From Georgenia sp. M64 (GTDB lineage: Bacteria > Actinomycetota > Actinomycetes > Actinomycetales > Actinomycetaceae), in contig NZ_CP145809.1 in the NCBI RefSeq assembly GCF_038049925.1, positions 1,116,001 to 1,180,000 on the forward strand: a DNA stretch of 64,000 bases, in the 5' to 3' direction. The notes beneath the pieces were generated by a model, which made no database searches, was not told the DNA's origin, and saw nothing but the letters and a program-made list of their open reading frames with translations. The position numbers and the translations under genes are program-made. Of this stretch, positions 5,984 through 35,764 are shown in pieces. Positions within the stretch are counted from its first letter, which is position 1. Each line of letters begins with the position of its first letter.

Positions 5984-6910
5984 ATGTACGCCGCCGAGGT
6001 TGCGCGCGCGACACAGCGACTCCGCCGATCCTCTGTCCTCGGCGTCTTCACCCTCGCGATGGCGGAGGAGGCCGGCTTCACCAGAGGATCCGTCAGGCAT
6101 CGCGTCTCCCGGGGACGATGGCAACGGCTGGTTGGCGCCGCCTACGTCGACGTCACCGCACCTGTCCCGCCCGGGAGCGACGCGTACCGCCGGGCCGCAG
6201 GGGCGGCACTGACGTGGCCGAGCGCGGTGGTCTGCCTGCGGACCGCCGCGCTCGTCCACGGGCTGCCGGTGCGGGACGACGGAAAGGCTCACGTGATCGT
6301 CCAGGGCCGTCGCCGGGTCCGGGCCGGACTCGTTCCGCACTTCCTCGAGCTGGGGCCGGGCGATGCGAGGAGGGTCCTCTCCTTCCAGGCGACGACGCCG
6401 TTGCGGACCGCGCTCGACTGCCTGGCGACCTTCCCGTACGGCGAGGCGGAGAACCTCCTGGCCTGGGTCCGCACCCGCGAGGTCGTGACCGTGGACGCAC
6501 TCGCCGCCGCGGTCGCCGAGCGTGGCGGGCGGCCGGGCGTCGCTCAGCTCCGGCGCCTGCTGGCGGCGACCGCCCGAGGAGCGCTGAGCGAGGGCGAGCG
6601 CCGCCTGCACCGCCTCCTCGACGTCGCAGGTCTGAGCGGCTGGGAGGCCGACCAGCGGATCGTGGTGAACGGTCGGGTGATCGCCCGCGCCGACGTCCTG
6701 TTCGAGGTCGAGCGGCTCATCCTCGAGGTCGACGGCCGGCGCGCGCACCCGGACTTCGAGGCCGACCGGGCTCGTCTCAACGCGCTCACTGTCGCCGGCT
6801 ACACCGTTCTTCGGTTCACCTGGCGCCAGCTGGTCGACCAGCCGTCCGCCGTCGTCACGCAGATCGGGCAGGCCCTGCGACGAGCACGGACGTTGAGGGC
6901 GGGCGGGTGA
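5984..6910 (+). CDS. Winged-helix (AbiEi-like) and DUF559 nuclease-like protein, copy A
   Basis: A 308-residue protein of a family that is multicopy in many actinobacteria. Its N-terminus resembles the AbiEi-type antitoxin winged helix (LAMAEEAGFTRGSVRHRVSR, then the substrate-like segment SAVVCLRTAALVHGLPV). The C-terminus is a DUF559/Vsr-like PD-(D/E)xK fold with D237 (RADVLF), E248 and D250 (LILEVDGRRAH), then DRARLNALTVAGYTVLRF. The same residues with the same spacing occur in copy B at 34657-35529. The function is unknown; single-gene nuclease, regulator or hairpin-processing roles are possible. The gene sits 135 bases after two 44-base hairpin repeats and interrupts the ffh-rpsP block. 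The ATG is supported by a -10-like hexamer six bases upstream. Confidence 0.8.
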   Translation: MYAAEVARATQRLRRSSVLGVFTLAMAEEAGFTRGSVRHRVSRGRWQRLVGAAYVDVTAPVPPGSDAYRRAAGAALTWPSAVVCLRTAALVHGLPVRDDGKAHVIVQGRRRVRAGLVPHFLELGPGDARRVLSFQATTPLRTALDCLATFPYGEAENLLAWVRTREVVTVDALAAAVAERGGRPGVAQLRRLLAATARGALSEGERRLHRLLDVAGLSGWEADQRIVVNGRVIARADVLFEVERLILEVDGRRAHPDFEADRARLNALTVAGYTVLRFTWRQLVDQPSAVVTQIGQALRRARTLRAGG

Positions 6911-34469: not shown

Positions 34470-34656
34470 GGCGCGCTCGGCGCTGAGGCCGCTCGGGGGC
34501 GATGCCGCCCGGGGCTGCCTCGCCCGGCGCAGATCCGGGCGCGGTCCCCGCCGAGTTGGGGGTTGTTGCCGTTTGCAGGGCCTTCGCACGGCAACAACAG
34601 CCAACTCGACGAGAAGCGTTCGCCCACCGGCGGGCGGATGGCCCCCGTCAGGCGGA
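34470..34656. other. Intergenic region between proS and the DUF559 gene, copy B
   Basis: This 187-base gap between convergent genes holds imperfect GC-rich repeats of CGCTGAGGC type near 34470-34500 and the long hairpin at 34552-34608. No gene was seen. Confidence 0.6.
34552..34608. repeat. Long hairpin element, left of DUF559 copy B
   Basis: Two 21-base arms (34552-34572 starting CGAGTTGGGGGTTGTTGCCG, and 34588-34608 ending AACAGCCAACTCG) pair at 19 of 21 positions around a 15-base loop. The arms contain GTTGTTGCCG/CGGCAACAAC. It may act as terminator for proS or the DUF559 gene, but a related copy lies on the other side of that gene. Confidence 0.85.
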
Positions 34657-35529
34657 TCAACTGCCTGTGGATGCTTGGTGCAGAGCCCTTCGGATCATCT
34701 CCACGACCTGTGCCGGGTGGCGCATCTGTGCACGGTCGATCACGAGCACCGTCCACCCCGCCATCCGCAGTGCGTTGAGGCGCGCACGGTCGCGGGTGAT
34801 CCACGCGGGATCGTCGTGGTGAGCGCCGTCGTACTCCACCGCGAGCCGCGCCTCCGGCCAGGCGAGGTCCGGCCGTGCGACGAACATCCCCTCGTCGTTG
34901 TAGACGCTGAGCTGTGTCACGGGCGGGGGAAGGCCGGCGAGAGCGAGGGTCACGCGCAGCACCGACTCGCGCGGGGACTCGGCGCCGGCGTCAACGAGGT
35001 CCAAGGTGCTCGCGACACGGCGGCAGCCCCGGACCCCCGGGTGCCGGGCCCCGACACTCTCCACGTCGCGGCGGAGTAACCCTGTCGCACGTACGAGCGC
35101 ATCCAGCAGGGGCACTGCCACGAGAGCGGAGTACCAACGCGCCAGGTCGTAGGCCGTCCGCGCCGCTGTCGTCGTGAGACCGAGCGGGGTCACCGTCGTC
35201 TCGTCCGTGTCGAGCGTGTCGGTGCGGAGGAAGAGCTGCGGCCTGCGTGCGGTCGTGGGGCGTGGGACCAGGAGCTCCACCCTGTCGGACCCCATCGCCA
35301 GACGCGCACCGAGCGCCCATGCCGCGCTCCGGCCGGCCAGGACCGCATCAGCGGGAAGGACCAGGCGGGCTGCGGCGATCATGTCGCCGTGCGTGACGGG
35401 TCCAGCCTGGCTGTAGACACCACGCATGAGGCGCACGTAGGCGTCGCCGCGCAGCTGCCCCGCGGTGACGTGTCGCAGGGCCGTCGACCGTGTGAACGGC
35501 CCTGATGGCAGTCCAGTTGGGGCGGGCAC
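34657..35529 (-). CDS. DUF559 nuclease-like protein with N-terminal winged-helix-like region, copy B
   Basis: A 290-residue paralogue of the gene at 5984-6910. Near the start it has GPFTRSTALRHVTAGQLRG...YVRLMRGVYS, then the middle segment ADAVLAGRSAAWALGARL. The C-terminal PD-(D/E)xK-like core has D221 (ARPDLAW), E232 and D234 (LAVEYDGAHH), then DRARLNALRMAGWTVLVID, with the same spacings as copy A. The frame is open 50 codons further upstream, but those codons run towards the hairpin at 35634-35690; the GTG at 35529 is preferred because GACGAT lies six bases before it and family members start here. Function unknown. It is bracketed by two related hairpins. Confidence 0.78.
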   Translation of the reverse strand: MPAPTGLPSGPFTRSTALRHVTAGQLRGDAYVRLMRGVYSQAGPVTHGDMIAAARLVLPADAVLAGRSAAWALGARLAMGSDRVELLVPRPTTARRPQLFLRTDTLDTDETTVTPLGLTTTAARTAYDLARWYSALVAVPLLDALVRATGLLRRDVESVGARHPGVRGCRRVASTLDLVDAGAESPRESVLRVTLALAGLPPPVTQLSVYNDEGMFVARPDLAWPEARLAVEYDGAHHDDPAWITRDRARLNALRMAGWTVLVIDRAQMRHPAQVVEMIRRALHQASTGS

Positions 35530-35764
35530 CGAGGCATCGTCGCGTCCCGTGGGCGAACGCTCTGGCGAGCACGCGCCGGCCTGTGGATCTCGAACCCTGT
35601 GGAGAAGACTGGGGTGCCCCGAGCCGCTCACGCCGAGTGGGTGGTTGTTGCTGCCGAAAGCGACTCTGCGACGCCACAACCCACAACTCGACGAGCGCGG
35701 CGGGGCTGCGGTGCGGTGCGGTGCGGGGCGGTGCGGTGCGCCGCGCGGTGCGGGAGGGCCCCGG
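35530..35764. other. Intergenic region right of DUF559 copy B
   Basis: This 235-base gap holds the second hairpin (35634-35690) and a run of GTGCG pentamers (about 35710-35755). No gene was accepted; the DUF559 frame continues to 35679 but is probably not translated there. Confidence 0.55.
35634..35690. repeat. Hairpin element, right of DUF559 copy B
   Basis: Arms 35634-35651 (CGAGTGGGTGGTTGTTGC) and 35673-35690 (GCCACAACCCACAACTCG) pair at 14 of 18 positions. Like the left copy it spans 57 bases, begins CGAGT, contains GGTTGTTGC, ends CAACTCG and is followed by ACGAG, in the same orientation. It is clearly the same element type, more diverged. Confidence 0.8.

What the first reader, a model, noticed from the sequence alone, without database searches (positions are those of the whole stretch)
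34552..35690. DUF559 nuclease-like gene bracketed by two related hairpins: possible mobile or REP-like unit
Seen: a 57-base hairpin (arms 19/21 paired) 49 bases beyond the stop and a second 57-base hairpin 105 bases before the start of the DUF559 gene. Both begin CGAGT, contain GGTTGTTGC, end CAACTCG followed by ACGAG, and point the same way. Known: DUF559 belongs to the Vsr-like PD-(D/E)xK nucleases, and such genes are multicopy in actinobacteria. RAYT transposases with REP hairpins are the closest known logic, with an unrelated enzyme. Inference: the nuclease may recognise, cut or spread these hairpins, or the unit may be a selfish cassette that inserts between housekeeping genes.
Basis: partly seen in the sequence, partly recalled or inferred. 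Interest (0 to 1): 0.78.

Follow-up and report, generated by a model that had tools for sequence, protein, structure and literature searches.

The report
Nuclease gene bracketed by matching palindromes
In many actinobacteria a gene for a predicted DNA-binding nuclease sits between two copies of a palindromic DNA sequence, and where we looked further copies are scattered between other genes, which looks like a mobile-repeat system run by an enzyme unrelated to the transposases known for this.

Summary
The enclosed gene encodes an AbiEi-like module fused to a Vsr-like nuclease. The bracket is not peculiar to this genome: of 75 usable relatives in a second sample, 46 share a similar sequence up- and downstream, against 7 of 385 other genes in the same loci; 38 of the 46 shared segments are inverted repeats. 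Palindromes differ between lineages. The window's family and three others searched in whole genomes are dispersed, with about 8 to 24 hairpins each. In one genus 11 orthologous nuclease genes keep one locus while their two hairpins change together. Three orthologous sites lack the hairpin in a sister species, one of them cleanly. No RAYT-type (Y1) transposase was found in 9 genomes. This works like RAYT/REP with an unrelated enzyme, so it is not a RAYT. I found no printed report in open-access PMC. Cutting, mobility and mechanism are untested; one abundant hairpin family has no partner gene found.

The parts
34549..34613 (+). hairpin 1 (core 34552-34608), intact palindrome between the convergent 3' ends of proS and the nuclease gene
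   Evidence: ortholog in G006
34657..35529 (-). AbiEi-like/Vsr-like (DUF559) nuclease gene; GTG start 35529 likely, ORF open to 35679
34990..35529 (-). AbiEi-like part (model residues 9-188), predicted DNA-binding module
34666..34983 (-). Vsr-like nuclease domain (model residues 191-296); D229, E240, H246, R258 and W267 invariant in 57 sequences
35631..35695 (+). hairpin 2 (core 35634-35690), degenerate copy of the same palindrome upstream of the nuclease gene
   Evidence: better preserved ortholog in G006

Best explanation
The gene and its two hairpins are the master locus of a REP-like repeat system. Shown by sequence: an AbiEi-Vsr fusion gene sits between two copies of a palindrome, one close to its stop and one upstream; the same palindrome family is scattered in the genome, mostly at 3' ends of other genes; within a genus palindrome and gene change together. 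Inferred: the AbiEi-like module binds the palindrome arms, the Vsr/I-Bth0305I-like domain nicks or cuts there, and repair copies hairpins into new intergenic sites or overwrites existing ones, so the copies in a genome stay alike. The enzyme gene itself rarely moves.
For: Paired flanks: 46 of 75 relatives score >=40 against 7 of 385 control genes in the same loci (nominal Fisher p 9e-36) and 1.6% of 5550 cross pairs; 38 of 46 shared segments are inverted repeats at z>3. In the first sample 16 of 49 DUF559 genes against 3 of 2352 cross pairs at >=45. Dispersal: 11 hairpin sites in G000 and 11 in G006; 22 arms in G024, 50 in G025 and 18 in G026, reversed-pattern control 0 in each. Genus of G025: 13 of 13 units examined have two matching hairpins; three or more arm matches in 10 of 11 genomes with the ortholog and 1 of 7 without (Fisher p 0.0025, or 0.013 with G033 moved). 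Unit fixed in place while its hairpins turn over together. At three orthologous solo sites G039 or G034 carries 62-nt hairpins where G025 has 73-nt ones. Hairpin-free sister sites. Conserved candidate catalytic residues. AbiEi-type proteins bind inverted repeats (PMC7319586, abstract). No Y1 transposase in 9 of 9 genomes.
Against: No cutting, binding or movement was observed. 33 of 49 and 29 of 75 DUF559-type genes show no such pair at the thresholds used, including the window's second DUF559 gene (L072, score 28) and, by score, the window unit itself (38). G039 has a rich dispersed family (53 arms) that does not match the hairpins of its only PF04480 gene, and 5 sites checked have no relative within about 6 kb; a prediction noted beforehand failed. 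G038 has 11 arms without a partner found. Model R1 also matched sites in G016 (13 matches, E 1e-7 and weaker) that are not close to its listed DUF559 genes. Positions in G000 and G006 look largely shared, so there is no sign of recent movement there. Many hairpins stay at orthologous sites (13 of 21 fetched in G025 have a G035 counterpart). In G000 one hairpin pair brackets a hydrolase gene.
Confidence: 0.62

Rival explanations
1. Regulon: the fusion protein is an AbiEi-type regulator; the hairpins are its operators at its own gene and dispersed targets, kept alike by selection for binding, and the nuclease acts elsewhere.
For: AbiEi-like module; AbiEi and Rv2827c autoregulate by binding inverted repeats (PMC7319586, abstract); one hairpin lies upstream of the gene.
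Against: In G025 and G035 31 of 44 sites lie within 50 nt after a stop codon and 6 of 40 classified are divergent; whole-element length differences (62 against 73 nt) at orthologous sites are not expected of operators; presence/absence at single sites.
Confidence: 0.14
2. Hairpins are moved by another, unidentified transposase; the nuclease gene is a passenger caught between two of them.
For: G039 and G038 hairpin families without a partner gene found; the hydrolase bracket in G000.
Against: The association recurs with different hairpins in many genera; the two paralogs in G035 and in G040 each have their own hairpin; no Y1_Tnp in 9 genomes (other transposase families were not searched).
Confidence: 0.12
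3. Ordinary bidirectional transcription terminators.
For: Positions at 3' ends; a terminator-like pattern of 6 pairs overlaps one arm of hairpin 2 (35624-35640).
Against: No terminator-like pattern at hairpin 1; long family-specific arms shared across one genome; up/down pairing at DUF559 genes but rarely at control genes; at one site a separate GC-rich hairpin is kept in both species while only the element differs.
Confidence: 0.05
4. Defence or restriction-like system in which the hairpins mark self DNA or serve as decoys.
For: PADLOC AbiEi models match (E 4.9e-7 for the window protein, 2.2e-16 for L109).
Against: No second gene inside the bracket; does not explain dispersal at 3' ends.
Confidence: 0.04
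5. RNA-level system: transcribed hairpins act as guides or 3'-end stabilisers for the nuclease.
For: Hairpins lie at 3' ends and could be transcribed (inference).
Against: Variable centre without a conserved guide layout; DNA-nuclease-like fold.
Confidence: 0.03

Closest known systems
RAYT (TnpA-REP) / REP and REPIN systems
   Same: Enzyme gene between two palindromes; cognate palindromes dispersed in extragenic DNA; enzyme and palindrome co-vary; gene keeps its place while its palindromes change; copies go with enzyme presence (PMC2817692 and PMC3116915, passages).
   Different: Enzyme is AbiEi-Vsr, not Y1/HUH (none in 9 genomes); elements here are mostly 50-75 nt hairpins (shorter near-perfect palindromes in Geodermatophilaceae), tens of arms rather than 37-427 perfect copies as quoted for Stenotrophomonas in PMC2817692; no GTAG tag was seen (not tested systematically); the window pair is in direct orientation.
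CGTC-tagged REPs without known transposase
   Same: Dispersed palindromes; PMC3733652 (abstract and passages) says they apparently lack a dedicated transposase.
   Different: 8-9 bp stems, mainly alphaproteobacteria; a link to DUF559 was not tested here.
Vsr-like homing endonuclease I-Bth0305I and Vsr repair endonuclease
   Same: Fold of the nuclease domain.
   Different: Fused to an AbiEi-like module and bracketed by palindromes; no intron or methylase was looked for beyond the bracket.
AbiEi antitoxins, type IV toxin-antitoxin
   Same: N-terminal fold; possible inverted-repeat binding (PMC7319586, abstract).
   Different: Nuclease domain fused at the C-terminus; neighbours are proS, a DUF4439 gene and rimP.

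Membership tests
RAYT/REP | Y1 (HUH) tyrosine transposase domain PF01797 | tested here: not met
   0 of 9 genomes; window protein hits DUF559 instead
RAYT/REP | gene flanked by two palindromes | tested here: met
   window (second one worn); relatives
RAYT/REP | palindromes dispersed in intergenic DNA | tested here: met
RAYT/REP | flanking palindromes in inverted orientation | tested here: inconclusive
   window pair is direct; elements are nearly symmetric, and both F and R matches occur
RAYT/REP | observed excision or cleavage of the repeats | not testable with these tools
   needs sequencing reads or an enzyme assay
DUF559 / Vsr-like nuclease | PF04480 above cut-off and Vsr-like fold | tested here: met
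Type IV TA (AbiE) | adjacent AbiEii nucleotidyltransferase toxin gene | tested here: not met
   the bracket holds only this gene; neighbours are proS, DUF4439 and RimP by Pfam
Intrinsic terminator | GC-rich stem followed by a run of T | tested here: inconclusive
   none at hairpin 1; one 6-pair pattern overlapping an arm of hairpin 2, not the full hairpin

The most novel reading that the evidence does not exclude
A second, independently evolved kind of enzyme-driven palindromic repeat system: an AbiEi-type DNA-binding module fused to a Vsr/homing-type nuclease spreads and overwrites its own palindrome by cutting and gene conversion ('homing of palindromes'), widespread in Actinobacteria.
Probability: 0.45. 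Interest if true: 0.93.

Novelty: categorically new. Interest (0 to 1): 0.85.

Why it matters
In the papers I saw, REP palindromes with a known enzyme are tied to Y1 transposases, and one large group is said to lack any enzyme (PMC3733652). A nuclease of another class with the same genomic signature would mean the strategy arose twice, would give a function to part of a family of unknown function (DUF559), and makes testable how dispersed palindromes stay alike. It would also offer sequence-specific nucleases whose target can be read from the gene's own flanks.

Tried and rejected
Palindromic target site: complementarity outside 44 hairpins is no better than shuffled pairing (Mann-Whitney p 0.38); rejected. 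G000/G006 comparison at 2569457: G006 has no hairpin there but the spacer is too diverged to show a clean site. Third G035/G025 site (C4:33762): G025 has about 1 kb of other sequence there, uninformative. Prediction that G039/G038 carry a second DUF559 gene with the GTTGTGGGCGCGATTTCGGG hairpin: not confirmed. Distant paralogs in that genus: none of 13 loci had a paired copy of the GTTGTGGGCG-type arm (one had a single arm-like match); at least two of them (L135, L147) have other paired hairpins. NCBIfam and Pfam give no finer name. Literature: (open-access PMC only, no preprints; several listings were capped, so absence is not proved).

Full report
OBSERVATION. The two elements are at 34549-34613 and 35631-35695, 71% identical over 65 nt in the same orientation. 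Hairpin 1 pairs 19 of 21 arm positions and folds with z -5.86; hairpin 2 pairs 15 of 21 and z is -0.87. Between them lies one gene on the minus strand, 34657-35529 (GTG start likely), with DUF559 at 23.6 bits, cut-off 20.6. Neighbours are proS before hairpin 1 and, after hairpin 2, a DUF4439 gene and then rimP.

THIS GENOME. The window lies in a 4.18-Mb single-contig genome, G000. It is probably a Georgenia: same-genus contigs G001:C34 and G008:C12 have the same lengths as contigs of Georgenia sp. EYE_87 and SYP-B2076 (inference). Eleven hairpins fit one model, which was built from them; 8 of 21 pairs show changes on both sides (few sequences). With a simple gene caller 6 of 11 lie between convergent genes, 4 between tandem genes and 1 between divergent genes. 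A second pair, 2.1 kb apart, brackets an alpha/beta-hydrolase gene, so a bracket alone does not prove partnership. Same-genus G006 also has 11 hairpin sites, two at its DUF559 gene, at the same proS-rimP place. Positions elsewhere look syntenic between G000 and G006; I compared them by coordinate offset only, except two stretches compared by alignment. The model also matched weaker sites in 14 other genomes: one lies by the DUF559 gene of G001, a weak one (E 0.04) by that of G003, while the 13 matches in G016 lie 20 kb or more from its listed DUF559 genes or on other contigs.

GENERALITY. DUF559 genes occur in 22 of 29 genomes searched. I fetched all 49 matches. Hairpin pairs of unrelated sequence were visible around several. 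Scored without regard to hairpins, 16 of 49 genes have similar sequence upstream and downstream (score >=45) against 3 of 2352 cross-gene pairs (13 of the first 40). The window's own score is 38, below that line. A second sample of 80 named loci (Georgenia, Cellulomonas, Paraoerskovia, Blastococcus, Geodermatophilus, Micromonospora, Nocardia, Mycobacterium, Curtobacterium and others; two loci recur from the first sample) gave 46 of 75 usable at >=40, against 1.6% of 5550 cross pairs and 7 of 385 other genes from the same loci (Fisher p 9e-36). Relatives are not independent draws, so the p-value is nominal; but the shared sequences differ between lineages. 38 of 46 shared segments are inverted repeats at z>3 and 41 at z>2; five are not clearly palindromic (L170, L176, L211, L216, L217), and L216 looks like low-complexity sequence.

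DISPERSAL. Arm patterns taken from three other brackets found 22 arm copies in G024, 50 in G025 and 18 in G026; the reversed pattern found none. By my count of the listings they make 10, 24 and 8 paired-arm hairpins, with two unpaired arms in each genome. In G025 and G035, 31 of 44 hairpins lie within 50 nt after a stop codon; of 40 classified, 16 are convergent, 18 tandem and 6 divergent (an earlier run with a slightly different gene caller gave 16, 24 and 4 of 44). In G000 the gaps are longer (about 45 to 950 nt where not overlapping).

CO-VARIATION. In the genus of G025 (18 genomes), an orthologous gene (60% identity or more over its main piece) is present in 11; those of G034 and G041 carry stop codons. 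All 13 units examined there (11 orthologs and two paralogs) have two matching hairpins; a broken G025 paralog has one. Three or more matches to the G025 arm pattern occur in 10 of 11 genomes with the gene and in 1 of 7 without (Fisher p 0.0025, or 0.013 if the three lone arms of G033 are not counted, typed tables). Caveats: the listing was cut, so matched copies were seen in detail only for G025, G029, G034, G035 and G038, eight in G039, and lone arms in G033 and G036; G033, G039 and G044 have bracket hairpins of another arm type, so their counts do not test the cognate rule (G044 scored 0). The main unit sits at one place in all 11 genomes by flank similarity while its two hairpins differ between species: upstream-downstream similarity within a unit averages 0.64, between units at the same position 0.25; the best downstream partner of an upstream hairpin is its own in 7 of 13 (one of the other six is an exact tie) and otherwise comes from a unit with the same kind of arm. 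In several pairs the gene is less conserved than its flank (for example 72% against 81 and 85%), as reported for RAYTs (PMC2817692, passages).

GAIN, LOSS AND REPLACEMENT. Downstream of one gene followed in 14 genomes, G025 has TAG-c-[72-nt hairpin]-gt-TCA between two convergent stops, while G040 has TGA-gcg-TCA, apparently the same two stops with three bases between them: no hairpin and no visible duplication. G035, G036, G031 and G030 also lack it; G029, G034 and G041 have a hairpin there with their own arms; G037 has another palindrome; the rest have other neighbours. A G035 hairpin at C6:7316 is missing in G025 together with about 40 nt. At C3:75629 the element is missing in G025, apart from an arm-like remnant, while a separate GC-rich hairpin beside it is present in both. 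A third site was uninformative. Of 21 G025 solo hairpins fetched, 13 have a G035 counterpart; the other eight had none among 18 G035 loci fetched, and only one of them was shown to be empty. At three orthologous sites the whole element differs: 62 nt in G039 or G034 against 73 nt in G025. Point changes cannot do this; replacement, conversion or re-insertion at the same place could.

MECHANISM. I favour an enzyme that recognises its palindrome, cuts or nicks there and lets repair spread or overwrite copies (about 0.6 for the REP-like partnership with an active enzyme; about 0.45 for the specific cut-and-convert route). No Y1 transposase was found in 9 of 9 genomes (the same search rang in 5 of 14 control genomes), so RAYT is not the mover in these. 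Other transposase families were not searched.

AGAINST. G039 has 53 arms of a family that does not match its only PF04480 gene; the prediction written beforehand failed (5 sites looked at). More than a third of DUF559-type genes lack a detectable bracket, so the trait belongs to part of the family or decays. Nothing shows recent movement in Georgenia.

KNOWN OR NEW. [quoted passage not shown] they are single-copy (PMC3116915, passages); CGTC REPs apparently lack an enzyme (PMC3733652, abstract and passages). Of 14 papers holding 'DUF559' (search listing), none has a title on such repeats; the one seen in passages treats a Caulobacter DUF559 protein as a Vsr-like repair enzyme (PMC12907096). 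Other searches. The library is open-access PMC only, so a report elsewhere cannot be excluded. I rate it categorically new because the enzyme class is unrelated to RAYT, although the logic is the same.

Noticed in passing
window 5984-6910 (L072 2425-3351): A second DUF559-type gene in the window with no paired palindrome (score 28), so the bracket is not universal in the family.
   Followed up: partly
L034 6458-8633: Two more hairpins of the same family bracket an alpha/beta-hydrolase gene (PF20091) without any nuclease.
   Followed up: partly
L288-L292 (G039): Very regular 62-nt palindromes (GTTGTGGGCGCGATTTCGGGGAC...), 53 arms in the genome, with no partner nuclease found at the 5 sites read.
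   Followed up: partly
L137, L138, L139: A second nuclease paralog with its own hairpin family in G040 and G035; G025 shows only broken pieces and one hairpin.
   Followed up: no
L283 (G037), downstream of the matched gene: At the site where relatives carry or lack the hairpin, G037 has a different repeated palindrome built on GAGATAGAGA.
   Followed up: no
L159, L165, L172, L174, L183, L198 (Geodermatophilaceae): Brackets here are short near-perfect palindromes, often in tandem (such as GGACTTTCGGCGCCGAAAGTCC in L165), resembling dimeric protein-binding sites more than long hairpins.
   Followed up: no
L035 9270-10313: G000 has about 1 kb with an oxidoreductase-like reading frame (named by eye) that is absent from same-genus G006 at the same place.
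   Followed up: no
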